From Acidobacteriota bacterium (GTDB taxonomy: Bacteria > Acidobacteriota > Vicinamibacteria > Vicinamibacterales > JAFNAJ01), in the NCBI GenBank assembly GCA_023384575.1, contig JAHDVP010000033.1, positions 1-62,431 on the forward strand: a stretch of 62,431 nucleotides of DNA. Direction: 5' to 3'. How positions within the stretch are numbered: the stretch's first letter is position 1; each line of letters starts with the position of its first letter. Made by a program: the position numbers and the translations under genes. The notes under the pieces are model-generated. The model was not told where the DNA came from. It saw nothing but the letters and a program-made list of their open reading frames with translations, and searched no databases. Shown in pieces: positions 1 through 23,139 of this stretch.

Positions 1-27
1 GTCGTCACACCCATCGACCGCGCGCGC

Positions 28-33
28 TATGAT
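28..33 (+). promoter_or_regulatory. possible -10 box upstream of the methyltransferase
   Basis: TATGAT matches the sigma70 -10 consensus at five of six positions and lies 46 bases upstream of the first gene. No good -35 box is visible in the few bases before it, so this is weak. Confidence 0.25.
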
Positions 34-78
34 GCCCAGACGCCAGGGACAGGATGTCTTCTTCAGGGAGAACGTGAC

Positions 79-795
79 GTGAGCCCATCGACGCTGCGCG
101 TGGCCAGCCTGATTGCCCTTCTCGTGGGACTTGGCGTCGACGCCGCCGCCCAGCAGGCGGCGACGCCCCACGAGATGCACGGTCGTCACCGCGACCCGAA
201 GGCGTACATCGCCTCGCTCGAGAATCCCGCGCGTGACGCCTACCAGAAGCCTGCCGAGGTCGTCGAGGCCCTCGGCCTCAGGCCGGGACAAGTCGTGGCC
301 GACATCGGTGCCGGCTCGGGGTACTTCGCGATTCGACTCGCCGAACCGGTGGGCGAGGCCGGCCGCGTGCTCGCCGTCGACGTGGATGCCCGACTGCTCG
401 AGCACCTCGAAGGGCGGGTGCGCGAGGCCTCACTCGGCAACGTCGAGACCATCCTCGCGCCACCAGACGACCCGCGTCTGCCAGAGGCGGGCGTCGACCT
501 GATCTTCTTCTGCAACGTGTGGCACCACATCGACGATCAGGACGGCTATCTCGCCAAGCTGCGACAGGCCCTCAAGCCCGGCGGCCGTCTCGTCATGATC
601 GACTTCCACAAACGCGACCTGCCTGTCGGGCCCGGCGTGGCGATGAAGATCGCGCGCGAGGATCTCCTCGCGCAACTCGAGGGCGCCGGCTGGCGTCTCG
701 TCCGCGAGCACGACTTCCTGCCCTACCAGTACTTCATCGAGTTCCAGCCCGGCACGGCCTCGGGACCCGAGCCGGAGGGCGCCCCACGGTCGTGA
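79..795 (+). CDS. exported class I SAM-dependent methyltransferase-like protein
   Basis: The 238-aa protein starts with GTG after an AGGGAGAA ribosome site. A hydrophobic segment (residues about 6-24) ending in DAAAQQ looks like a Sec signal peptide. The rest is a Rossmann methyltransferase: motif I DIGAGSGYFA from D75, an acidic strand-end AVDVDA, and a motif-IV-like FFCNVWHHI. Family knowledge predicts SAM-dependent methyl transfer, but the substrate is unknown. The odd point is the signal peptide, because SAM is cytoplasmic; either the signal is an uncleaved anchor or the domain has another role outside. It ends 78 bases before the deacetylase gene and may share its transcript. The methyltransferase fold is well supported; location and substrate are inference. 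Confidence 0.85.
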   Translation: MSPSTLRVASLIALLVGLGVDAAAQQAATPHEMHGRHRDPKAYIASLENPARDAYQKPAEVVEALGLRPGQVVADIGAGSGYFAIRLAEPVGEAGRVLAVDVDARLLEHLEGRVREASLGNVETILAPPDDPRLPEAGVDLIFFCNVWHHIDDQDGYLAKLRQALKPGGRLVMIDFHKRDLPVGPGVAMKIAREDLLAQLEGAGWRLVREHDFLPYQYFIEFQPGTASGPEPEGAPRS

Positions 796-873
796 ACACG
801 TCGCGACGGCCTCACTGCGGCTTCGTGTCGTGTTCGGGGTAAGCTCCGGGCGTGAGGGTCCTCGGGAGGTGTC

Positions 874-1872
874 GTGCCAGCCGGTGACGGCCGGACGTCG
901 GCCGGTGTTCATCCCGTCGTGGCGACCGCCGTGGTGGTCGTCGTCTTGCTCCTGTTCGTCGGTGTGGGCTCCATGCTCGCCCCCACCTCCACCGATCCGC
1001 CCCAGCGCCGCGCGGTGGCCCTGACCTTCGACGACCTGCCGTGGGTGACGCCCGGCGGCCGGCCGCTCGGAGACGCGCCAAGGCGCCTCTCGGCGCTGCT
1101 GGGCGCCCTGGCCACTGTCGACGCCCCGGCGGTGGGCTTCGTCAACGAGGGTCAGCTCGACCGTGCGGGCGAGCGGGCGGCCAGGCTGAGGATGGTCCAG
1201 ATCTGGGCCGGTGCCGGTCACGAGCTCGGCAACCACACGTATTCGCACCGATCGCTCAGTGCCACCCCGCTCGACGAGTTCACGGCGGACGTGCTGCGCG
1301 GGGCTGCGGAGATCCGCGCGATCGCCGAGCGGTACGGCGGCGAGGTTCGCTACTTCCGCCATCCCTTCACGCACACGGGTCCGACGCGCGAGATCCGCGA
1401 CGCTTTCGACGCGTTCCTCTCGGCCCACGGCTACGTCGTTGCCCCCTTCACGGTGGAGAACGCCGACTACCTGTACAACGCGGCGTACGTGCGGGCCCTC
1501 GAGCGAGAAGACGAAGCGCTGGCGGGCCGTCTGCGCGACCTGTACCTCGAGCACACGACCCGCATGTTCCTGTTCTTCGAGCGCCTGTCGGTCGAGACCT
1601 TCGGCCGGGAGATTCCCCAGGTGCTCCTCCTGCACGCCAATCACCTGAACGCCGACACGCTGCCGGATCTGCTCGGGCGCCTCGGGCAGCGCGGCTACCG
1701 GTTCATCCCGATCGAGGCCGCGCTCGCCGACGCGGCCTATGGGACGCCAGACGAGTACGTCGGACGATTCGGTCCGTCGTGGCTTCACCGCTGGCGCGTC
1801 GGCCGGGGCCTGCCCTCGAAGCTCGCCGACGAACCCGAGCCTCCGGCCTGGCTCGCCGATCTCGCGGAATAG
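874..1872 (+). CDS. polysaccharide deacetylase (NodB/CE4 fold), membrane-anchored
   Basis: The 332-aa protein starts with GTG behind GGGAGGT. One hydrophobic segment (about residues 15-33) anchors or exports it. NodB-homology motifs follow: TFDDLP at 51-56 (catalytic base and metal Asp), HTYSH at 121-125 (metal-binding His pair), and RHPFTHTG as motif 3. These residues are those needed for metal-dependent removal of N- or O-acetyl groups from envelope or capsule sugars. The enzyme would act at the periplasmic face. The true substrate (peptidoglycan, chitin-like polymer or exopolysaccharide) cannot be read from sequence. It is closely preceded by the exported methyltransferase and followed by a separate promoter at 1921. 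Confidence 0.88.
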   Translation: MPAGDGRTSAGVHPVVATAVVVVVLLLFVGVGSMLAPTSTDPPQRRAVALTFDDLPWVTPGGRPLGDAPRRLSALLGALATVDAPAVGFVNEGQLDRAGERAARLRMVQIWAGAGHELGNHTYSHRSLSATPLDEFTADVLRGAAEIRAIAERYGGEVRYFRHPFTHTGPTREIRDAFDAFLSAHGYVVAPFTVENADYLYNAAYVRALEREDEALAGRLRDLYLEHTTRMFLFFERLSVETFGREIPQVLLLHANHLNADTLPDLLGRLGQRGYRFIPIEAALADAAYGTPDEYVGRFGPSWLHRWRVGRGLPSKLADEPEPPAWLADLAE

Positions 1873-9383: not shown

Positions 9384-12300
9384 ATGATCACCGCCGATCC
9401 GCATCGACGCGCCGCCACGTTCGACGAGGTCTGCCGCATCCTCGAAAGACAAGGCCCATCAGAGGATCATGAACGTCTGGTCGCCTTCGCGCGGGTGGCG
9501 TTCGCCGAGATGCCCGATGCGATGGCGCTCACGCTCGAGCCGCCGGCGCTCGCCGCGCGGCTGGCGGGGTACTTCCACTTCGTCACCTCGAAGATGCCGC
9601 CGGAGCACCAGCTGTACCGCGGTTTGCCGGGCATCCACGTCGTGGTACGCAACCCGTCCAACGAGGAAGAGGCGGCCACCGGCAGCGCCAGCGGGCATCA
9701 CCACGAGACGACGATCGTCGAGACGCACCTGCCCGACGCACCGTTCATCTTCGAGAGCCTGAAGAACTTCTTCCAGAAGGAAGGTCTGCGCGTGTTCTCG
9801 GCGGTGCACCCGATCTTCACCGTGCGCCGGCAGTGGGAGCGCGTCGTGTGGGTCGGCGGGCCAACCGAGGACGGGTCACGCGAGCTGTATACCCAGTTTC
9901 GCATCGAGCGCGTCGAGAGCCGCGAGCGCCTGCGGCGGCTCGAGCACCAGGTGCACGCCCTCCTGAAGAGCGTGATCCTCGCCGTCGAAGACTTTCCCGA
10001 GATGAGCCGCGTCTCGCGTGAGCTGGCCGATCGCGTGCACGGCCGAACGGGCAGCGCTTCGGACATGGCGGCGGCTCGCGCGTTCCTCACGTGGCTGCTC
10101 GACGAGAACTACGTCCACGTCGGGATGCTGCGGTGCACGATGGGCAGTGACGGGGCCCTGCATCCGACGCAGGACGTGGCGCTCGGCGCCTTCCGCGACC
10201 CGTCGCTCGTCGAGACGGTGTTTCCGGGGTTGAGCGATCGGTTGGCGACGCACCTGGCACCGAGACCCGACGACGATCGCATCGTGCACATCGACTTCTG
10301 CACGAACGCGGGCGCCATTCACTTCCTGGACCCGATCGACGATCTCGTGATCCGCGAGTGGGCGCCCGACGGACGATTGGCGGCCGCGACGGTCGTGCTC
10401 GGCCGCCTCGCGAAGAGCGCGTTCACCGAGCGTGCGCAGGACATCCCGCTGCTCAGGGAGAAGGTCACCTGGCTGCTCGACCACAGCGGAGCGCTGCCCA
10501 ACTCGCACGCCTACCGGGAGATTCGCGCGATCTTCAATCACTTCCCGAAGCGCGAGCTGTTCTACGCCGACGCCGGGGCGCTCAAGACGATCATCGATCA
10601 GATGGCCTACATGGCCAGCGACGACGAGATCGCGGTGGCGACCCGGGCCGGCGAGGGGTACGCGGCGGCGTCGATCGCCTTCTCGGACACGCGGTATTCC
10701 CACCGCGTCGAAGAGGACCTCAAGGCCGTCCTGGCCGAGAGGTTCGGTCCGATCTCGTTCAACACGTGGGCCGACTGCGGCACCAACGGCGTGCTGGTCT
10801 ACTACTTCGACCAGGCGACGCTCGAGCACCCGCTCGATCCGGACCGGATCCGCGATCTCACCCGGCGGATCATCATGACGTGGGAGGATCGCACGGCGCT
10901 GACGCTCGAGCGGGCGTTCGGTCCGACCGAGGGGCGGCGGCTGTTCAAGAAGTACGTGCGCAACGAGAGCCGCAGCGGGCTCTACCGCGAGACGACGGCT
11001 CCGGAGGAGGTGCCCGAGGATCTGAAGCGCTTCGAGCGGCTCGAAGGCCGGATGGAGCTGGCGATCGAGCCGCGGTCGGCCGAACAGGCGACGCTGAAGC
11101 TGTTCTCGCCGCGCCCGATGCCGCTCACCGAGATGCTCACCATGCTCCAGAACCTGGGGCTCGCGGTGGTCGACGAGATGAACATCCCGCTCGTCCTGCC
11201 AGACGGGCGACGGGCGTGGCTCGAGCGCCTGCGCATCGAAGGCGAGGCCGCCCAGGTCGCGGCCCTGGTCACCGGTGAGCAGAGGCTCCTCGACGCGATC
11301 CGCGCGCTGCAGGAGGGACGTGGCACCGACGACTCGCTGAACGCCCTCGTGCTGGCGCAGGATCTCGGCTGGCGCGAGGTCGAGATCCTGCGCACGTTCC
11401 GCAATCACCTGCTCCAGATCCGCCCGGCCTACAACGCCGAGACGCTGAACGGGGTCCTGCTGCGCAACGGTCACGTGTCACGGGCGTTGTTCGATCACTT
11501 CGCGGCCCGCTTCGACCCACGGCTCGAGGGCGACCGGCGCGCGGCGATGGACGAGGGCGCCGGCCGCGTCCGGACGGCCCTCCGCCGGGTCGGCTCACTG
11601 CTCGACGACGAACTGCTCAGGGGCCTCGACAACCTGATCGAGTCGACCGTGCGGACGAACTACTACCAGCACCCGGAGCGGCCGGTCTTCTCGGTCAAGG
11701 TCGACTGCGGGAAGGTCGAGCGGATGGTGTCGCCGCGGCCCATGTTCGAGATCTACGTGCACTCGCGGCTGCTCGAGGGAATCCACCTGCGCGGCGGCAA
11801 GGTGGCGCGGGGCGGCCTGCGGTGGAGCGACCGGCACGACGACTTCCGGACCGAGGTCCTCGGGCTGATGAAGACGCAGATGGTCAAGAACTCGATCATC
11901 GTCCCGGTGGGCTCGAAGGGCGGGTTCGTGCTGAAGGGAGACGTGCCGCCACGACCGGCCCTCGACGCGTATCTGATCGACCGCTATCGGCAGTTCATCT
12001 CCGGCCTGCTCGACGTGACCGACAACCTGGTCAACGGCGAGGTCGTGCACCCGCCCGAGGTGGTGTTCCACGACGAGCCCGACCCGTATCTCGTGGTCGC
12101 CGCCGACAAGGGTACGGCCCACCTCTCCGACACGGCGAACGCCGTGTCGGCGCAGTACGGCTTCTGGCTCGGTGACGCGTTCGCCTCGGGTGGCAGCGTC
12201 GGCTACGACCACAAGAAGGAGGGCATCACGGCGCGCGGCGCGTGGGAATGCGTGCGCGAGCACTTCCGCAATCTCGGCACCGATATCCAGAAGGAGCCCT

Positions 12301-13667
12301 TCACGGCGGTCGGCATCGGCGACATGTCAGGCGACGTGTTCGGCAACGGCATGCTGCTGTCCCGCGCCACGCGCCTGCTCGGGGCCTTCAACCACCAGCA
12401 CATCTTCATCGACCCGGACCCTGACATCGAGGCGAGCTTCACCGAGCGAGAGAGGCTGTTCGCGCTGCCACGGTCGACGTGGCGAGACTACGATGCTTCA
12501 CTGATCAGCGCGGGCGGCGGCATCTTCGACCGGGCCGCGAAGTCGATCCCGATCAGCCAGAAGATGCGCGCGCTGCTCGAGATCGAGGGCGACGAGGCGA
12601 GCGGCGAGGAGGTCATCCGCCGCATTCTCATGGCGAAGGTCGATCTGCTCTACAACGGTGGCATCGGGACCTACATCAAGGCCTCGAGCGAGACCGACCA
12701 GCAGGTGGGCGACCGCACCAACGACCGCGTGCGGATCGACGCGAACCAGGTGCGCGCGCGCGTGGTCGGCGAAGGCGGCAACCTCGGACTCACCCAGAGG
12801 GCGCGCATCGAGTACTGGATGCACGGCGGGCGCGTCAATACCGACGCCGTCGACAACTCCGGCGGCGTCGACATGTCGGACCACGAAGTCAACATCAAAA
12901 TCCTGCTCGGCGTGCTCCTGCGGTCGGGCGTGGTGAAGGACCGGGCCGAGCGCAACGCGATCCTCGCGGAGATGACCGACGACGTCTCGTCGCTCGTCCT
13001 GCTCGACAACCAGCATCAGGCCCGCGCCCTCACGCTGGCCGGCCTCCGCAGCATCAACCGGTACGAGGAGTTCGTCGACCTCATCGACGATCTCGTGGCC
13101 AGGGGCATCATGAACCGGAAGGACGACGGCCTGCCGTCGCGCGAGGAACTGCTGGCGAGCCCCGCCCGGGAGCGCGGCATCCCGCGGCCCGTGCTCGCCG
13201 TCATGCTCGGGCACATGAAGAACTGGGCCTTCCGGGAGGTGATGACGACCAGCCTGCCGGATAGCCCGGTCGGCGAGGGCTTCCTGCACGCCTACTTCCC
13301 TCGACGGATGCGCGAGAGCTTCGCAGAGCACTTCGTCACCCACCCGCTCCGGCGCGAGATCGTGGCGACCTGCGCCGTGAACCACCTCGTCAACCACGCG
13401 GGCATCAGCTTCCTGCCCCGAGTGATGGGCGCGGCCGGGGCCGGCCTGGCGCCGGTCGTGGCGGCCTATCTCGAGGTCGACCGCGCGAGCCGTGCTCAGG
13501 AGCTTCGTGAGGCCGTGCTCGCGACGGGCATGAAGATCGAGGACGAACTCCAGGCGCTGCTCTCGCTCGAGGAGGCCCTCGAAGGCGCCGTGCGGGCCAG
13601 GCTCGAGGGCAAGACGGACGATGCCGCCACGGTGCTCGATCCGCTTCGCCGGACGCTGAGGCTGTAG
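9384..13667 (+). CDS. NAD-dependent glutamate dehydrogenase, large type
   Basis: The 1427-aa protein is a Bac_GDH-type dehydrogenase, a little shorter than the usual about 1600 aa. It converts L-glutamate and NAD to 2-oxoglutarate, ammonium and NADH in the cytoplasm. The N-terminal half is the ACT-like regulatory region of this family. The catalytic domain shows GGLRWSDR near residue 813, the lysine-rich substrate motif VGSKGGFVLKG near 845, and AADKGTAHLSDTAN near 908, followed by GIGDMSGDVFGNGMLLS of the nucleotide-binding fold. The size class suggests a catabolic role in glutamate use. It is transcribed alone or with the two small downstream genes. Identification is firm. Confidence 0.95.
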   Translation: MITADPHRRAATFDEVCRILERQGPSEDHERLVAFARVAFAEMPDAMALTLEPPALAARLAGYFHFVTSKMPPEHQLYRGLPGIHVVVRNPSNEEEAATGSASGHHHETTIVETHLPDAPFIFESLKNFFQKEGLRVFSAVHPIFTVRRQWERVVWVGGPTEDGSRELYTQFRIERVESRERLRRLEHQVHALLKSVILAVEDFPEMSRVSRELADRVHGRTGSASDMAAARAFLTWLLDENYVHVGMLRCTMGSDGALHPTQDVALGAFRDPSLVETVFPGLSDRLATHLAPRPDDDRIVHIDFCTNAGAIHFLDPIDDLVIREWAPDGRLAAATVVLGRLAKSAFTERAQDIPLLREKVTWLLDHSGALPNSHAYREIRAIFNHFPKRELFYADAGALKTIIDQMAYMASDDEIAVATRAGEGYAAASIAFSDTRYSHRVEEDLKAVLAERFGPISFNTWADCGTNGVLVYYFDQATLEHPLDPDRIRDLTRRIIMTWEDRTALTLERAFGPTEGRRLFKKYVRNESRSGLYRETTAPEEVPEDLKRFERLEGRMELAIEPRSAEQATLKLFSPRPMPLTEMLTMLQNLGLAVVDEMNIPLVLPDGRRAWLERLRIEGEAAQVAALVTGEQRLLDAIRALQEGRGTDDSLNALVLAQDLGWREVEILRTFRNHLLQIRPAYNAETLNGVLLRNGHVSRALFDHFAARFDPRLEGDRRAAMDEGAGRVRTALRRVGSLLDDELLRGLDNLIESTVRTNYYQHPERPVFSVKVDCGKVERMVSPRPMFEIYVHSRLLEGIHLRGGKVARGGLRWSDRHDDFRTEVLGLMKTQMVKNSIIVPVGSKGGFVLKGDVPPRPALDAYLIDRYRQFISGLLDVTDNLVNGEVVHPPEVVFHDEPDPYLVVAADKGTAHLSDTANAVSAQYGFWLGDAFASGGSVGYDHKKEGITARGAWECVREHFRNLGTDIQKEPFTAVGIGDMSGDVFGNGMLLSRATRLLGAFNHQHIFIDPDPDIEASFTERERLFALPRSTWRDYDASLISAGGGIFDRAAKSIPISQKMRALLEIEGDEASGEEVIRRILMAKVDLLYNGGIGTYIKASSETDQQVGDRTNDRVRIDANQVRARVVGEGGNLGLTQRARIEYWMHGGRVNTDAVDNSGGVDMSDHEVNIKILLGVLLRSGVVKDRAERNAILAEMTDDVSSLVLLDNQHQARALTLAGLRSINRYEEFVDLIDDLVARGIMNRKDDGLPSREELLASPARERGIPRPVLAVMLGHMKNWAFREVMTTSLPDSPVGEGFLHAYFPRRMRESFAEHFVTHPLRREIVATCAVNHLVNHAGISFLPRVMGAAGAGLAPVVAAYLEVDRASRAQELREAVLATGMKIEDELQALLSLEEALEGAVRARLEGKTDDAATVLDPLRRTLRL

Positions 13668-14518: not shown

Positions 14519-14944
14519 TCAGAAGATCCAGCTCACGCCGACGAACCCGTTGACGTACCGGCCCGACTGATCGATCAACAGGTACGACGACTTGTCGTCG
14601 TACCGGCTCACTTCGACCATCGTGTTCACCATCAGCTCGTTCGTCAGGCGGTAGTTCACGCCGACACTCTGCGTGAACTGGCCGATGTCCAGGTTCGAGA
14701 AGCCCGGCGTCGACGACGACTGCAGGACGAAGTCGAGGCCGAGGGTTTTCGACACGAGATCGGCACTCGGCGCGTACGTGAAGTTGTAGATGGACGCCTT
14801 ACCGCGGTTCCAGGCCGTGTTGGCGAAGATCTCGGCCCGCGCCGAGGGGTAGACCTGGAGACCGGCCCAGGCGTTGTGCGCGTCGTTCTCGTAGCCGCCG
14901 TCGGCGTCGAGGGAGCCAAACTGGCCCCCGGTGATGCCGGCCGC
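14519..14944 (-). pseudogene. C-terminal part of the MtrB/PioB-like barrel, beyond an in-frame TGA
   Basis: Reading on past the TGA at 14945-14947 in the same frame gives 141 more residues with no other stop. They look like barrel strands (AGLQVYPSARAEIFANTAW, TQSVGVNYRLTNELMVNTMVE) and end in GVSWIF, the aromatic end expected for an outer-membrane barrel. The upstream part alone lacks such an end. So this is the real C-terminus of the same protein, cut off by one stop codon. Options are a recent nonsense change, a sequencing error, or recoding. A hairpin starting 16 bases after the TGA is noted under the findings. No internal start with a ribosome site supports independent translation. Confidence 0.7.
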
Positions 14945-16741
14945 TCAACCGACGAAGGCAAGGGTGGAGAAGAGCGTCTCCAGCCGCTCGCGTTGATACT
15001 GGTAGCCCGCCGAGAGGGTCCAGCGCTCGCCTCCCGCAAACCAGAGGTCGACGCCGGGCGAGTGCGCCGAGCGCGTCCAGTCGGAGTAGTTCAGCTCGTC
15101 GTTCTTCGAATCGCGATACCGATAGCTGGCCGAGATCGCGACACGTTCGTCCGGCGTCCACGACACCGTCTGGTCGAAGCGCAGGTCGCGTGACGGAAAC
15201 GACGTCAGGTCGGTCGACCGGGTCCGGTAGAACTCGTAGTACTGCAGGCCGAGCAGCGGTGACGGCGGCGACCCCGGGCTCGGGAAGGGCTGCAGCACCG
15301 CCGGCGTCGCGGCGTGCACGTACCGGAAGGGTTCGTCGATCCAGTCGTTCCTGACCCGGAACCGGTACTGCGCCTGCCTGCCGAGCGGCGCCCGGCCGCT
15401 CACGAGCACGGTGTTCGTGGTCGTCTGGTCGATCTCCCCGTGCGGGCGATCGATCCGCTCCCACTCGTACCCGAATCGCAACGAAGTCTTCTTCCGCGGA
15501 CGGTAGTTCAGCTCGACCGCCATCTCGGTCGGCGTACGCGACCGCTCGGAGTAGCGCGTCCAGTCGAGCTCGCCGACCGTCGGGTACGCTTGCTCGTAGG
15601 TGAGTCCGGCGATTGGGCCGGCGGGGTTCGGCTTCTCGGGCACGTGAATGAAGACATCGTCGGCCTCGATGCTGTAGCGGCGCAGGTCGGCCCGGAGCGT
15701 GAGCTTCGGGTGGATCGGCACGACGAGCCGTCCGCTGCCTCCCGTGTAATCGACCTCGAGCCGGGTGTCTTCGTTGCGCGAGACGCTCTTCGTGAACTGC
15801 CCCGAAAGCGCCGCGTCGCGCGGGAGCGCGACGTTCGCGCGCACGACGTGCATGTCCTTGCGCAGGCCCGGAACGGTCGCCATCGGCAGCGGACCGTCCT
15901 CCTCTTCGTACCACAGCCGGTTGAGGAAGATGTCCTGGAGCGTGGCCGGGTGCACGCCGTTGATGTACTGCGTGATGATGGTCGGCGCGTCGCTCCGGAA
16001 CAGGCGATTGGTGTAGGTGTAGTCGACGCTCACCGCGCCCATCGCGATCTTCGCGCCCGCCGAGAGGTCGCGCGTCGTCTCGTCGACCTCGCGCGTGTAG
16101 CCGCGCACGTGGCACGTCGCGCAGTGGTTCACCGTCGTCGACTGGCGCGCGCCGTCGCGCATCTGCTGCCGGTGGCCGACGAAGAACGAGACGCCCGCCG
16201 GGAGGTTGGTCGAGACGCGCGCGTCGAGCTCGCCCACGTTCACCTGGTAGCGCGCCCCGGGATCGGTGTCCTCGTGCGTCACGACGAAGGTGCCGTTGAT
16301 GTTCGACGCCGAGTCGAGGTAGGCGAGCGAGTCGTGCTCGATGCGGTGCGGGAAGCGCTGGTAGCGCACGTGCGCGCGCACCCACCGGTTGAAGTCGATG
16401 TCGGCGAGGTAGCGTTGCGCCCGGGCATCACCCGAGTTCCGTGCCGAGACGTCGAAGTGGAAGCCGCTGTGGCCCCCCCAGAACTCGGCGGCGAGCGAGG
16501 GCACGGCGCCCGGCCTCAGCACCTGGAACTCGCCGACGCGCCCGAGGTCGTTTCTGCCGTCGGTGGCCAGCGTGCCGAAGGTGAACATGCCCTCCCACTT
16601 CAGACCCGGTGGGGAAGGGGCGACCTGAGCCGGGTCGGCTGGTGGTGACGCCGGCGTCTGGCCGTCGGCGGCCGGCGGTGCGAGGCCGAGCGCCAGGGCG
16701 ACGGCGACCACGGGCAGGATGAGACTCGATCCGGTTCGCAT
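14945..16741 (-). CDS. MtrB/PioB-family decaheme-associated outer-membrane barrel (main part)
   Basis: ATG at 16741 follows GGAGGGA and lies 11 bases after the decaheme cytochrome stop, so the two are one operon. Residues 1-26 are a signal peptide ending in ADGQ. The rest reads as repeated beta strands with long loops, as in MtrB/PioB barrels, which hold a periplasmic decaheme protein and let electrons cross the outer membrane. A single heme motif, CATCH, lies near residue 205. The frame stops at TGA after residue 598; with the following 141 residues the protein would be about 740 codons, within the family range. The family call rests on architecture and the decaheme partner. Confidence 0.75.
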   Translation of the reverse strand: MRTGSSLILPVVAVALALGLAPPAADGQTPASPPADPAQVAPSPPGLKWEGMFTFGTLATDGRNDLGRVGEFQVLRPGAVPSLAAEFWGGHSGFHFDVSARNSGDARAQRYLADIDFNRWVRAHVRYQRFPHRIEHDSLAYLDSASNINGTFVVTHEDTDPGARYQVNVGELDARVSTNLPAGVSFFVGHRQQMRDGARQSTTVNHCATCHVRGYTREVDETTRDLSAGAKIAMGAVSVDYTYTNRLFRSDAPTIITQYINGVHPATLQDIFLNRLWYEEEDGPLPMATVPGLRKDMHVVRANVALPRDAALSGQFTKSVSRNEDTRLEVDYTGGSGRLVVPIHPKLTLRADLRRYSIEADDVFIHVPEKPNPAGPIAGLTYEQAYPTVGELDWTRYSERSRTPTEMAVELNYRPRKKTSLRFGYEWERIDRPHGEIDQTTTNTVLVSGRAPLGRQAQYRFRVRNDWIDEPFRYVHAATPAVLQPFPSPGSPPSPLLGLQYYEFYRTRSTDLTSFPSRDLRFDQTVSWTPDERVAISASYRYRDSKNDELNYSDWTRSAHSPGVDLWFAGGERWTLSAGYQYQRERLETLFSTLAFVG

Positions 16742-16752
16742 GGCGTCCCTCC

Positions 16753-17760
16753 TCAGCGCGTCATGGCCTTGCCGCGGCCGGTGACGCCCTGCGACGGCAG
16801 ATCCGAGCCGTGGATCTTGTTGTGGCACGCCGTGCACCGCGTGCCGTAGGCGCGCATGAACCCGGTCGGGCCGTTGGGGTTCGTCGAGCCGCCAGCCGGC
16901 AGGAAGAACGGCGTGCTCGGCGCGAGTCGCGCGTTGTGGAAGTGCATCTCGTGGCACTGCAGGCACAGGAACGGCTCGCCCTGCTTGAGCAGGTTGTTTG
17001 CCACCGTCCCGTGCGGCGAATGGCAGCTCGTGCAGCTCTCCTCGACCGGCGCGTGCTCGAAGACGAAGGGGCCGGCCTTCGACGTGTGACACGACGTGCA
17101 CAACTCGTTCGGCCGCTCGGCCGAGCGGACCATGCCGAGGCCAGTGCCGTGGACCTCGTGACAGGAGCTGCATGTCATCAGCCCCTCGCGCACGGGGTGC
17201 CGCGAGCTGCCCATGAACTGCGCCCGCTGTTGCCTGTGACAGTCGAAGCACAGCTCCGGCTCGGACTTCGCCAGTGAGCCGCGTGGCGCCGGGGCCGTCG
17301 CATGCGAGGCCACCATCCCTTCGGCCGACGTCAGACGCCCTGCGACCTGGCGCGACTGGTGAATCCTGTGGCAGCTGGTGCAGCCGACGTCAGACATCGC
17401 GTGCTCGCTGCCGGCCCAGGCCATCGCCGAGTCGCCGCGATGGCACGACAGGCACGCTCGCGCCGACTCCTCGACGGTCAGATCCTTGAAGCCCCTGATC
17501 GCCGCCGCGTCGCCGCTCTCGGCGTGCGTGCTGCCTGGGCCATGGCAGGACTCGCAGCGCTCGTGCGGCGCGCGGTGCTCCCACGCCGCGAGCCGGCCGT
17601 GCGCCGATCGGTCGAACTGAGTCGCGACCTCTTCGTGACACATCGCGCAGGTGTCCTGGCCCACGGCCGTCGCCGGCGGACCTGCCGACTGTGCCGACAG
17701 CAGGCCCGCGGCGCCCACGGCGAGGGCGCCGACGAAGCCTGCCAGGTGGGGAAGACGCAT
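16753..17760 (-). CDS. periplasmic decaheme c-type cytochrome (MtrA/DmsE type)
   Basis: The 335-aa protein has a signal peptide (residues 1-24, GALAVGAAGLLSAQS) and exactly ten CxxCH motifs, from CAMCH at 38-42 to CTACH at 309-313: CAMCH, CESCH, CLSCH, CTSCH, CFDCH, CSSCH, CTSCH, CTSCH, CLQCH, CTACH. Length and heme number match MtrA/DmsE/PioA. Such proteins carry electrons across the periplasm into a barrel partner, and that partner gene follows at 11 bases. The start at 17760 was chosen for its GAGGGGG ribosome site and clean signal peptide; a longer frame up to 18021 would run through the promoter. No surface cytochrome gene accompanies it here. A sigma54-type promoter lies about 64 bases before the start codon's leader. 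Confidence 0.92.
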   Translation of the reverse strand: MRLPHLAGFVGALAVGAAGLLSAQSAGPPATAVGQDTCAMCHEEVATQFDRSAHGRLAAWEHRAPHERCESCHGPGSTHAESGDAAAIRGFKDLTVEESARACLSCHRGDSAMAWAGSEHAMSDVGCTSCHRIHQSRQVAGRLTSAEGMVASHATAPAPRGSLAKSEPELCFDCHRQQRAQFMGSSRHPVREGLMTCSSCHEVHGTGLGMVRSAERPNELCTSCHTSKAGPFVFEHAPVEESCTSCHSPHGTVANNLLKQGEPFLCLQCHEMHFHNARLAPSTPFFLPAGGSTNPNGPTGFMRAYGTRCTACHNKIHGSDLPSQGVTGRGKAMTR

Positions 17761-17835
17761 GATGAAGCCCCCTCTCGAGTTGTCTGGCTCGGTCGGCCCG
17801 CCGGGCGGCAGACACAACCTCGACACACGGCAGGG

Positions 17836-17850
17836 GCAAGCGTCGTGCCG
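17836..17850 (-). promoter_or_regulatory. sigma54 promoter of the decaheme/barrel operon
   Basis: Read on the minus strand, CGGCACG, four bases, TTGC matches the -24/-12 consensus TGGCACG-N4-TTGC at all but the first base, with GG and GC ten bases apart. The start would be near 17825, leaving a leader of about 64 bases before the cytochrome ATG. Confidence 0.75.
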
Positions 17851-17980
17851 CACACCGCCGCATCGTTCGTCACCACCTTCAAGTCCTTTCTCACGTGACA
17901 GATGCCTGGCTCGGGCGAGCCGGCGGGCCTGGGCCATCGCTCGACTGGTGCGACAAGATGGCAGGGTTTCGGCCGCGTCG

Positions 17981-18067
17981 TTGACAGATTGTCCAGACAG
18001 GTTCCGACTGACGGTGCCCACGCCACGGAAAGTCGGCGAAACCTGCGGGATCCTGACAATCTGTCAA
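17981..18067. promoter_or_regulatory. paired dyads, likely enhancer sites for the NtrC-type regulator
   Basis: TTGACAGATTGTC (17981-17993) and its exact inverse GACAATCTGTCAA (18055-18067) lie in the 455-bp gap between divergent operons. Each is itself a dyad of the form TGACA-N3-TGTC(A/C). Their centres are 74 bases apart, seven helical turns. They are about 140 and 105 bases from the -24 elements on either side, a normal distance for enhancer sites. A lone TGACAGAT half-site lies at 17896. Nothing else gene-like is visible in the gap. Confidence 0.7.
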
Positions 18068-18166
18068 TGGTCCGCGTCGCGTCGGATGGCGGTTGACGTT
18101 CGCTAACTCGCTGAGCGCGTGTGTGTTGCAGGCGTGTGACGACTCCGTGCCGACGCCCGCAGCGGG

Positions 18167-18181
18167 TGGCGTCTGAATTGC
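18167..18181 (+). promoter_or_regulatory. sigma54-type promoter of the kinase/regulator operon
   Basis: TGGCGT, five bases, TTGC followed by TTTT fits the -24/-12 pattern, with GG and GC spaced by ten. The start would be near 18193, 23 bases before the kinase ATG and just upstream of its GGGGAGGG ribosome site. This would make the regulator autoregulated. Confidence 0.65.
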
Positions 18182-18215
18182 TTTTACGACCTCATCGACC
18201 GGGGAGGGCACGCGC

Positions 18216-19394
18216 ATGGCACTGGCGGCGGGAACGGTCGGGCGAGTCGGCACACCGCCGCAAAGCGACGCCTGTGACGTGGTACCACACGCCGTTGCGG
18301 CCGCCAGGCGCGACGACGTGGCGGCTCCGCTGAGGGGACCGTCGGCCGACGAGTACCGGGAGATCCTCGCCACGATCGACGCCCTGCACCGGCCGCCCGA
18401 GCTGTCGCCCTCGTCGCGTGCGCTCGACATCTTCGCGGTCGGCTTGCCGCTCGTGGCCGCCACGGTGACCGCCGGCTTCGTGTTGACGAGAGTTGTCCCC
18501 CGAGGCCAGCTCGTCTGGCTCGGTCTGGCGCTGGCCGCCCTCGTTGCGGGTCATGTCCTGCTGCGCCTGCGCCGACAGCGTCACCTGGCCGAGCGCGAGA
18601 CGGAGCAGGTGAGGCGCGAGCTGGCCCTGCAGGCCCGTGTGGCCGCCTGCGAGTCGCGTCGCCATCGCCTCGCCGCCTTCTCGCGCCTCGCCGCGCAGAT
18701 TGCCCACGAGGTCCGGAATCCGCTCAGTTCGATCGTGCTCAATACGGAACTGCTGGAAGAGGAGCTGGGGAGCGCGCCGTCGGCGCCGCAGGCCGAGATG
18801 CTCGGCCTCGTCACGTCGATCAAGTCCGAAGCCGAGAGGCTCCACCTGCTCACGAACGAGTACCTGGCGTTTGCCCGGATGCCCGAGCCGGAGCCCCAGT
18901 CCATCTCGCTCGGCCGGCTCGTGGCGGACGTCGCGGGATTCGTCCGCGAGGAAGCGGCCCGGCAAGGTGTGGTCATCGACACGCGTCTGCCCTCGACCGG
19001 CCCGCCGGTGTCCGCGGATCCGCGCCTCGTCAGGCAGGCGGTCGTCAACCTCGTGCGCAACGCCCTCGAGGCCATGCCCTCGGGAGGCCGGCTCACGCTG
19101 TCGGCGCGTCAGGTCGGCGCGTTCGGAGTGCTCGACGTGGCCGACACCGGCCCGGGCGTTCCGGAGGAATACCTCGACGAGATCTTCGAGCCGTTCTTCA
19201 CGACCCGCCCCCAGGGGACGGGCCTCGGGCTCTCGGTCGCCGCCCGGATCGTGCGCGAGCACGGCGGCCGGCTCGAGGTGCGAAACGACGGGGGCGCCGT
19301 CTTCACGGCGTGGCTGCCGACGACGGTGTCCACGGCCGTCCGGCCGGTCGGACGCGTCGCGGAGGTGCCCGACCTCGTCGGTGAGGAGGCCTGA
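18216..19394 (+). CDS. membrane histidine kinase of the NtrB/ZraS-like class
   Basis: The 392-aa protein starts with ATG after GGGGAGGG. Two membrane helices (about residues 70-89 and 97-115) are separated by only a few residues, so there is no real periplasmic sensor domain. A coiled-coil linker follows, then the H-box AAQIAHEVRNPLSS with phospho-acceptor H164, the N-box LVRNALEAMPSG, and G-boxes DTGPGVP and GTGLGLSVAARIV. It should autophosphorylate and pass phosphate to the regulator encoded one base after its stop. The sigma54 promoter in front and the divergent decaheme operon suggest it senses a redox or electron-acceptor cue, possibly within the membrane. The signal is unknown. Confidence 0.9.
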   Translation: MALAAGTVGRVGTPPQSDACDVVPHAVAAARRDDVAAPLRGPSADEYREILATIDALHRPPELSPSSRALDIFAVGLPLVAATVTAGFVLTRVVPRGQLVWLGLALAALVAGHVLLRLRRQRHLAERETEQVRRELALQARVAACESRRHRLAAFSRLAAQIAHEVRNPLSSIVLNTELLEEELGSAPSAPQAEMLGLVTSIKSEAERLHLLTNEYLAFARMPEPEPQSISLGRLVADVAGFVREEAARQGVVIDTRLPSTGPPVSADPRLVRQAVVNLVRNALEAMPSGGRLTLSARQVGAFGVLDVADTGPGVPEEYLDEIFEPFFTTRPQGTGLGLSVAARIVREHGGRLEVRNDGGAVFTAWLPTTVSTAVRPVGRVAEVPDLVGEEA

Positions 19395-19395
19395 C

Positions 19396-20769
19396 GTGCC
19401 CAATCGCATCCTGGTCGTCGACGACGAGGAGGAGCTGAGGCGGTCGGTCGAGAAGATCCTTCGCCGCTGCGGCCACGAGGTCGACACGGCGGCGACCGGG
19501 GCGGCCGCCATCGAGCTGGTGCGCCACCGGCCCTACAGTCTGGTGATCACCGACTTCCGCCTGCCCGACACCGACGGCCTGGAGTTGCTGCGGCAGGTGA
19601 GGACGCTGCTGCCCGACGTCGAGGTCCTCGTCATCACGGCGTTCGGCAACATTCCGCTGGCGGTCGACGCCATCCGGCACGGCGCCTACGACTTCCTGTC
19701 GAAGCCCTTCAAGCGGGCCGAGCTCGAGCACGCCGTCGCGCGCGCCGTCGAGCGGCAGGCGCTCGCGGCCGAGAACCGGCGGCTGAAGCTGGAACTGGCC
19801 GAGCGGGGCTCGTCGCCGTTCTCGCGGGTAGTGGGCCAGAGCCCCGCGATTCAGCGGGTGCTGCAGATGGCGGAGCAGGTCGCGCCGAGCAGTGCGACCG
19901 TCCTGGTGGTCGGCGAGAGCGGCACGGGCAAGGAGGTCGTGGCCGAGACCATCCATCGCCTCGGACCCCGCCGCGATCGTCCGCTGGTCAAGGTGAACTG
20001 CGCGGCCCTGCCCGAGACGCTCCTCGAGGCCGAACTCTTCGGTCACGAACGGGGTGCGTTCACCGGCGCGCTCGGGCGTCGAGAGGGACGGTTCGCGCTC
20101 GCGCACCAGGGCACGTTGTTCCTCGACGAGATTGGCAGCGTCAACCTGGCCGTGCAGGTCAAGCTGCTGCGCGTGCTGCAGGACGGGACGTACGAGCCCC
20201 TCGGATCGACGCGCACTGCCCGATCCGATTGCCGCATCGTCGCCGCGACGAACCTGGATCTGGCAGAGGAGGTCGCCGCCGGACGGTTTCGCGAGGACCT
20301 GTACTACCGGCTGAACGTGATCACGATAGAGATGCCTCCGCTGCGCGAGCGGATCGAGGACGTGCCGCTGCTCGCCGCTCATTTCCTGCGCGTCTACGCA
20401 GCCCGCAACGGGAAGGACATCGACGCCATCGCTCCGGCGGCGATGCAGCGGCTGATGGCGTGGCACTGGCCCGGCAACATTCGTGAGCTCGAACACGCCG
20501 TCGAGCGCGCCGTCGTCCTGGCCACCGGGCGAATCATCGAGGAGGGCCACCTGCCCCAGAGCCTCAGGGGCCGGCTGGCGACAGGCACGGGCCCGGCGGC
20601 CGAGCCGCCAGCCGATGCCGCCGTCATTCCGGTGCCCGTGGGACTGCCTCTCGAAGACGTCGAGCGGCTGCTCATCCAGGAGACCCTTCGTCGTACCGGC
20701 GGCAACAAGCAGCGCGCGGCCGAACTGCTCGGCATCGCGTCGCGGACCATCTACCGGAAGCTCGGATGA
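19396..20769 (+). CDS. NtrC-family sigma54-dependent response regulator
   Basis: The 457-aa protein starts with GTG one base after the kinase stop; GAGGAGG lies eight bases upstream. Receiver domain: VVDDEEE at 7-13, phospho-acceptor D53, LSKPFK near 110. AAA+ domain: Walker A GESGTGKE near 173-180, the sigma54-contact loop GAFTGA near 221-226, Walker B LFLDEIG, and the R-finger region RFREDLYYRLNV. C-terminal Fis-type helix-turn-helix (NKQRAAELLGIASRTIYRKL) at the very end. All residues needed to bind sigma54 polymerase and remodel it are present. Its likely sites are the paired dyads in the upstream gap, between two sigma54 promoters. Confidence 0.95.
   Translation: MPNRILVVDDEEELRRSVEKILRRCGHEVDTAATGAAAIELVRHRPYSLVITDFRLPDTDGLELLRQVRTLLPDVEVLVITAFGNIPLAVDAIRHGAYDFLSKPFKRAELEHAVARAVERQALAAENRRLKLELAERGSSPFSRVVGQSPAIQRVLQMAEQVAPSSATVLVVGESGTGKEVVAETIHRLGPRRDRPLVKVNCAALPETLLEAELFGHERGAFTGALGRREGRFALAHQGTLFLDEIGSVNLAVQVKLLRVLQDGTYEPLGSTRTARSDCRIVAATNLDLAEEVAAGRFREDLYYRLNVITIEMPPLRERIEDVPLLAAHFLRVYAARNGKDIDAIAPAAMQRLMAWHWPGNIRELEHAVERAVVLATGRIIEEGHLPQSLRGRLATGTGPAAEPPADAAVIPVPVGLPLEDVERLLIQETLRRTGGNKQRAAELLGIASRTIYRKLG

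Positions 20770-20832: not shown

Positions 20833-23139
<2,307 letters not shown>

What the first reader, a model, noticed from the sequence alone, without database searches (positions are those of the whole stretch)
17836..18181. Two divergent sigma54 promoters around paired enhancer dyads control a decaheme/barrel operon and its own regulator
Seen: CGGCACG-N4-TTGC facing the cytochrome operon, TGGCGT-N5-TTGC facing the kinase operon, and between them TTGACAGATTGTC and its exact inverse with centres seven helical turns apart. The plus-strand operon encodes a kinase and an NtrC-type regulator with an intact GAFTGA loop. Known: such regulators bind dyads 100-200 bases upstream of -24/-12 promoters. 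Inferred: one regulator switches trans-outer-membrane electron transfer and itself. The whole switch is readable from one 455-bp gap.
Basis: partly seen in the sequence, partly recalled or inferred. Interest (0 to 1): 0.85.

Follow-up and report, generated by a model that had tools for sequence, protein, structure and literature searches.

The report
Sigma54 switch for electron-export selenoprotein operon
A soil or groundwater acidobacterium carries a real, evolutionarily conserved two-way genetic switch in which a two-component regulator most likely turns on both itself and a small gene set for passing electrons through the outer membrane; the design is of a known type, but this wiring, and the fact that one of the controlled genes is a selenoprotein, look new for this group.

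Summary
Two sigma54 (-24/-12) promoters face away from each other in the 455-bp gap between a decaheme cytochrome gene and a histidine-kinase gene. Between them lie two TGACA-N3-TGTCA-type palindromes. In five relatives whose intergenic DNA is otherwise saturated (about 40% identity), the cytochrome-facing promoter is kept in all five. The palindromes are kept in four, with compensating outer-base changes (T..A to C..G), and the kinase-facing promoter in both relatives that retain that gap. The sharpened palindrome YGACARATTGTCR occurs exactly only at this operon in three genomes including the window's own. Paired AT-core palindromes mark only this operon among 162 genomes of the order. rpoN is present; kinase and activator carry all catalytic motifs. 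Activator binding and transcript ends remain untested. "Seven helical turns" is not conserved (72-95 bp). I file it as a new member of a known kind: a divergent sigma54/bEBP control unit on a GSU2203/GSU2204-type porin-cytochrome pair.

The parts
17835..17850 (-). sigma54 -24/-12 promoter of the decaheme/barrel operon, CGGCACG-N4-TTGCC
   Evidence: PWM 13.1 bits, shuffle P=0.006; kept upstream of the orthologous gene in all five relatives
18167..18182 (+). sigma54 -24/-12 promoter of the kinase operon, TGGCGT-N5-TTGCT; predicted start site about 23 bp before the kinase ATG
   Evidence: PWM 11.7 bits, shuffle P=0.025; TGGCGTCCCGCTTGCA in G003 and TGGCACCCCCTTTGCG in G002 at the same place
17982..17994 (+). 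activator-site palindrome 1, TGACA-GAT-TGTCC (one mismatch)
18054..18066 (.). activator-site palindrome 2, TGACA-ATC-TGTCA (perfect)
   Evidence: only perfect copy in the 5.9-Mb genome
17895..17903 (+). possible extra half-site GTGACAGAT nearer the cytochrome promoter
   Evidence: direct repeat D6; a half-site TGACAGATT also occurs in G003; weak
16753..17760 (-). decaheme c-type cytochrome, 335 aa, ten CXXCH, signal peptide
   Evidence: NF041028 GSU2203 family 368.9 bits (cut-off 325), TIGR03508 DmsE family 241.4 bits (cut-off 192.2)
14519..16741 (-). MtrB/PioB-like outer-membrane barrel with one CXXCH, 598 aa + UGA(Sec) + 141 aa
   Evidence: NF041027 GSU2204 (seleno)protein 578.9 bits, match ends at the residue before the TGA; PF11854 46.4 bits
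14945..14947 (-). in-frame TGA, predicted selenocysteine codon
   Evidence: FSTLAF-x-G-U-AAGITGG in G002, G003 and G097, and FSTLNFGGUAGGVTG in G038 (the G001 contig ends before this point); tRNA-Sec 61.8 bits and SelB 314 bits in the genome
18216..19394 (+). sensor histidine kinase, 392 aa, two TM helices with a very short loop, no PAS or periplasmic domain, Cys in the linker just before the H-box
   Evidence: HisKA and HATPase_c; H164, N-, G1- and G2-boxes and TM helices
19396..20769 (+). NtrC-type response regulator, 457 aa (GTG start)
   Evidence: PF00072 + PF00158 234 bits + HTH_8; TDFRLPD, GESGTGKE, GAFTGA, LFLDEIG and HTH present
20833..23139 (+). malic enzyme-phosphotransacetylase fusion, probably last gene of the kinase operon (first ATG in the open frame at 20833; frame open from 20773)
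   Evidence: PF00390, PF03949, PF01515; HK-RR-malic order also in G003 and G038

Best explanation
The gap is a divergent, sigma54-dependent control unit. A membrane kinase, likely redox-responsive (inferred), phosphorylates the NtrC-type regulator encoded behind it. The active oligomer binds the two YGACARATTGTCR palindromes in mid-gap (inferred from position and specificity). By looping it remodels sigma54-RNA polymerase at the -24/-12 promoter on either side. One promoter drives the decaheme cytochrome and the selenocysteine-containing barrel, a trans-outer-membrane electron conduit. The other drives kinase, regulator and probably malic enzyme-phosphotransacetylase, giving positive autoregulation. 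Shown: the elements, their conservation, their specificity to this operon, intact catalytic motifs, and RpoN in the genome. Inferred: binding, transcription starts, signal, autoregulation and direction of electron flow.
For: Promoters and palindromes are above chance in the window and recur in relatives although the gaps align at only about 40% identity. Palindromes covary: TGACA..TGTCA becomes CGACA..TGTCG in G001. Exact YGACARATTGTCR is found only at this operon in G000, G002 and G038; paired AT-core sites only at this operon among 162 genomes. Distances are steady: near site 120-163 bp and far site 203-239 bp from the cytochrome promoter, and near site about 97-101 bp from the kinase promoter (from positions). 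RpoN is present. Regulator motifs are intact. The HK-RR pair is adjacent in G003 and G038.
Against: No transcript or binding data. The kinase-facing promoter is individually the weaker one, could be tested in only three genomes, and is absent or very weak facing the regulator in G001 (7.2 bits, P=0.25). G097 keeps the cytochrome sigma54 promoter but has a different activator and only a weaker AGACA-N3-TGTCG site. In G038 the cytochrome operon is separated from the kinase operon by citrate synthase, so the divergent layout is not universal.
Confidence: 0.83

Rival explanations
1. Only the cytochrome promoter is activated by sigma54 and the regulator; the kinase-facing -24/-12 match is fortuitous or minor and the kinase operon is expressed constitutively.
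For: The kinase-facing match has P of only 0.01-0.025 per region; there is no good regulator-facing promoter in G001.
Against: The site recurs at the same place 31-49 bp before the start codon in three genera with unalignable gaps, with an ideal GG-N10-GC spacing each time.
Confidence: 0.15
2. The palindromes are operators of some other transcription factor (repressor or redox regulator), not of the adjacent NtrC-type protein.
For: No binding test; 13-bp N3 palindromes are not unique to bEBPs; the nearby activator differs in G001 and G097.
Against: They sit at enhancer distance from sigma54 promoters, which require a bEBP, and nearly nowhere else in the genome; the AAA+ activator gene is next to them. 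In G001 the activator beside perfect palindromes is a homologue (56% identity) that lost its receiver, consistent with a changed input and a kept output.
Confidence: 0.1
3. The TTGACA strings are sigma70 -35 elements and the dyad arrangement is coincidental.
For: Both palindromes contain TTGACA in the window.
Against: No -10-like hexamer at 16-18 bp on either strand by eye; relatives keep the palindrome but not TTGACA (CTGACA, GTGACA, GCGACA).
Confidence: 0.02

Closest known systems
DVU3142-ohcBAC regulon of Desulfovibrio (PMC4641369)
   Same: A sigma54 activator gene divergently transcribed from a multihaem cytochrome operon, with conserved -24/-12 promoter and activator sites upstream of the cytochrome operon.
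   Different: DVU3142 is a one-component activator and Ohc passes electrons from a periplasmic cytochrome to inner-membrane proteins; here a two-component pair, an outer-membrane porin-cytochrome pair, and a second sigma54 promoter for the regulator.
orp divergent operons of D. vulgaris co-regulated by sigma54 and a cognate regulator (Fievet et al. 2011, cited in PMC4641369)
   Same: Two divergent operons under sigma54 and one local regulator.
   Different: Different cargo; compared from title and citation only.
GSU2203 (OmcK)/GSU2204 of Geobacter sulfurreducens (NF041028/NF041027; PMC4070692, PMC13188914)
   Same: Same NCBIfam families: decaheme cytochrome plus CXXCH-containing barrel (seleno)protein; in Geobacter both are up-regulated with hematite or magnetite.
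   Different: I could not examine the Geobacter promoter; no GSU22xx locus tag appears in the text of the RpoN regulon paper (PMC2725144). The switch described here is in Vicinamibacterales.
RpoN regulon of Geobacter sulfurreducens (PMC2725144)
   Same: Sigma54 control of genes including cytochromes for extracellular electron transfer; consensus TTGGCACGGTTTTTGCT.
   Different: A global study; no description of this divergent unit found in the passages read.
LuxO/NtrC/ZraR/AtoC-type response regulators
   Same: Receiver-AAA+-Fis HTH architecture; a 13-bp, N3-spaced palindrome like the LuxO site (LuxO site from memory).
   Different: Below every equivalog cut-off (AtoC 467.5 vs 714, ZraR 427.6 vs 760, LuxO 386.3 vs 800); palindrome sequence differs.

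Membership tests
Sigma54 (-24/-12) promoter | GG-N10-GC with YTGGCACG-N4-TTGCW context | tested here: met
   Both sites have exact spacing; 13.1 and 11.7 bits
Sigma54 (-24/-12) promoter | RpoN encoded in the genome | tested here: met
   TIGR02395 457 bits, cut-off 277
Sigma54 (-24/-12) promoter | Transcription start about 12 bp past the -12 GC and rpoN dependence | not testable with these tools
   needs RNA data or a mutant
Two-component bEBP (NtrC family) | Phospho-acceptor Asp, Walker A/B, GAFTGA, R-finger region, Fis-type HTH | tested here: met
Two-component bEBP (NtrC family) | Tandem upstream palindromic sites at enhancer distance, conserved | tested here: met
Two-component bEBP (NtrC family) | Direct binding of the regulator to the sites | not testable with these tools
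   gel shift or footprint needed
AtoC, ZraR, LuxO or NtrC equivalog | NCBIfam equivalog cut-off | tested here: not met
   all scores below cut-off
GSU2203 decaheme cytochrome (NF041028) | curated cut-off 325 bits, ten CXXCH | tested here: met
   368.9 bits, ten motifs
GSU2204 CXXCH (seleno)protein (NF041027) | curated cut-off 350 bits, model ending at the Sec position, TGA in frame | tested here: met
   578.9 bits, match to profile end 580/580 at residue 598, next codon TGA
Bacterial selenoprotein gene | SelB, tRNA-Sec and a SECIS stem-loop just after the UGA | tested here: inconclusive
   SelB and tRNA-Sec found; a small stem-loop recurs about 18 nt after UGA in all five genes folded, but folding energy is not better than shuffles
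Mtr/Pio/Pcc trans-outer-membrane conduit | periplasmic decaheme plus porin-like barrel | tested here: met
   no outer-surface cytochrome gene recognised beside the pair
Mtr/Pio/Pcc trans-outer-membrane conduit | demonstrated electron transfer | not testable with these tools
   needs biochemistry

The most novel reading that the evidence does not exclude
One sigma54 two-component switch couples a selenium-dependent outer-membrane electron conduit to central carbon flux (malic enzyme-phosphotransacetylase in the regulator operon, citrate synthase next door in one relative), with a near-loopless membrane kinase reading quinone or membrane redox state through a linker cysteine conserved in the three kinases read. 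Lineages rewire only the input: kinase plus receiver in some, a dead kinase-dimerisation remnant fused to the AAA+ domain in another, and a PAS-like AAA+ activator in a third.
Probability: 0.2. Interest if true: 0.65.

Novelty: new member of a known kind. Interest (0 to 1): 0.46.

Why it matters
Electron-export genes occur in Acidobacteriota, but I found no held paper describing how such genes are switched there. This locus gives a complete, specific and testable prediction: one regulator, one 13-bp site and two promoters. It also places a selenoprotein porin-cytochrome pair under dedicated two-component sigma54 control, so expression conditions and function could be probed by reporter assays.

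Tried and rejected
A wider regulon: exact YGACARATTGTCR or one-mismatch sites elsewhere in six genomes; the ones opened (G001 C425, G000 C36 and C107, G097 C8) showed no paired second site or convincing sigma54 promoter next to the site. YGACANNNTGTCR without the AT core is too common to be useful (29-77 per genome). Strict seven-turn spacing: not conserved. Sigma70 reading of TTGACA: rejected. Pseudogene or sequencing-error reading of the barrel TGA: rejected, because TGA and context recur in independent genomes. Distant GSU2203 homologues (Desulfuromonadota, Krumholzibacteria, Gemmatimonadota and others): no palindrome pair, and only two with convincing -24/-12 candidates (L082, L083), so the switch as such is a Vicinamibacterales feature. 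MAFFT could not align the gaps, so motif positions, not alignment columns, were compared.

Full report
What is there. The window is 70% G+C and lies in a genome whose closest held relatives are Vicinamibacteraceae (Acidobacteriota): contig G003:C319 of a same-family genome has the same length and content as the public record titled Vicinamibacteraceae bacterium ACI2. On the minus strand lie a 335-aa decaheme cytochrome (17760-16753) and an MtrB/PioB-like barrel (16741-14519). On the plus strand lie a histidine kinase (18216-19394), an NtrC-type response regulator (19396-20769) and a malic enzyme-phosphotransacetylase fusion (ATG at 20833, to 23139).

Is it more than chance. With a sigma54 weight matrix written from the published consensus, the cytochrome-facing site scores 13.1 bits and the kinase-facing site 11.7. 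They rank second and third of all positions on both strands of the 62-kb window; the top one lies inside the decaheme coding region. Against dinucleotide shuffles of the gap the probabilities are 0.006 and 0.025, and 0.0003 for two GACA-N3-TGTC palindromes. TGACANNNTGTCA occurs once in the 5.9-Mb genome, here.

Relatives. Only six of 100 related genomes have a decaheme over the GSU2203-family cut-off, the window's own included. I read the sequence around the other five. G003: kinase and cytochrome divergent, 460-bp gap, cytochrome promoter GGGCACAGTGCTTGCC, kinase promoter TGGCGTCCCGCTTGCA, one perfect palindrome TGACAGGTTGTCA and a half-site. G002: 442-bp gap, promoters TGGCACTCCGCTTGCG and TGGCACCCCCTTTGCG, two perfect palindromes TGACAATTTGTCA and TGACAAATTGTCA. 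G001: divergent from an AAA+ activator, cytochrome promoter GGGCACACCCATTGCG, two palindromes CGACAGATTGTCG and CGACATTCTGTCG. G038 (another family): kinase-regulator-malic enzyme, then citrate synthase, then the cytochrome operon with promoter CGGTACTCCTCTTGCA and palindromes TGACAATCTGTCG and TGACAGATTGTCA. G097: a different AAA+ activator (PAS-like N-terminus, domain call by reading only) directly upstream, promoter CGGCACCTGACTTGCT, and a weaker site AGACATCCTGTCG. The five long gaps are otherwise at about 40% pairwise identity, no better than unrelated DNA. The recurrence of the elements in the same order and at similar distances therefore reflects selection. The outer bases change together (T..A to C..G), which is what a palindromic protein site predicts.

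Specificity. The sharpened site YGACARATTGTCR has exact matches only at this operon in G000 (1), G002 (2) and G038 (2), and at one further place in G001. Searching 162 genomes of the order for two GACA-N3-TGTC sites 58-88 bp apart gave 11 genomes. Only four have the AT-rich core, and all four are this operon. The single-site matches elsewhere that I opened have no paired second site or convincing sigma54 promoter beside them. The switch thus looks dedicated to one locus.

How it probably works. RpoN is present. The regulator has the phospho-acceptor region, Walker A, GAFTGA, Walker B and a Fis-type HTH; the kinase has H, N, G1 and G2 boxes. Palindromes lie about 120-163 and 203-239 bp from the cytochrome promoter and about 97-101 and 173-177 bp from the kinase promoter (derived), within or near the usual enhancer range. 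The simplest mechanism is one phosphorylated activator, bound mid-gap, looping to either promoter, which drives the conduit and its own operon. Binding, start sites and autoregulation are inferred. The kinase has two membrane helices with almost no loop and no recognised sensor domain. A cysteine (CESRR/CEARR) precedes the H-box in all three kinases read; a redox role is speculation by analogy with RegB (from memory).

The barrel frame continues 141 codons past a TGA. NCBIfam NF041027, GSU2204 family CXXCH-containing (seleno)protein, matches 578.9 bits and ends exactly before that codon. The codon and its context (FSTLAF-x-G-U-AAGITGG) recur in G002, G003 and G097, with a variant in G038 and in a Desulfobacterales homologue, L084. 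The genome has SelB and tRNA-Sec. Selenocysteine in this family is known (PMC13188914). The kinase operon probably includes the malic enzyme, since the order is kept in G003 and G038.

Known or new. Local bEBPs beside divergent sigma54 promoters are a known design; the closest published case for multihaem cytochromes is DVU3142-ohc in Desulfovibrio (PMC4641369). RpoN also affects cytochromes in Geobacter (PMC2725144). The Geobacter family members GSU2203 (OmcK) and GSU2204 rise with iron oxides (PMC4070692). I found no report of this control in Acidobacteriota or for a GSU2203/2204 pair in the searches run. I file it as a new member of a known kind.

Noticed in passing
window 14945-14947 (-): In-frame TGA in the barrel gene is very likely a selenocysteine codon (GSU2204 family), conserved in four relatives whose contigs reach it; SelB and tRNA-Sec are in the genome.
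   Followed up: yes
L071 (G001:C56) 3-1070 (-): The activator beside the cytochrome operon in G001 has lost its receiver; its N-terminus is a remnant of the kinase dimerisation domain (38% identity to the G003 kinase over 69 aa) with the phospho-accepting His replaced by Arg, fused straight to the AAA+ domain.
   Followed up: partly
window 20833-23139 (+): Malic enzyme-phosphotransacetylase gene directly follows the regulator, also in G003 and G038; in G038 citrate synthase (by reading) sits between it and the cytochrome operon.
   Followed up: partly
window 18216-19394, residue about 151: Cysteine in the coiled linker before the H-box (CESRR/CEARR) kept in the window, G003 and G002 kinases although their N-termini differ; possible redox sensor.
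   Followed up: partly
L032 279-1547: The G038 regulator reading frame lacks roughly 44 residues of the receiver and linker; assembly error or true deletion.
   Followed up: no
G000:C6:146094-149113: A run of tandem multihaem matches in the window's own genome suggests a giant multihaem cytochrome elsewhere.
   Followed up: no
window 9384-13667 (+): A 1427-aa protein, taken to be a large NAD-type glutamate dehydrogenase (recognised by eye; no NCBIfam hit), sits downstream of the barrel and is kept there in G002 and G003.
   Followed up: partly
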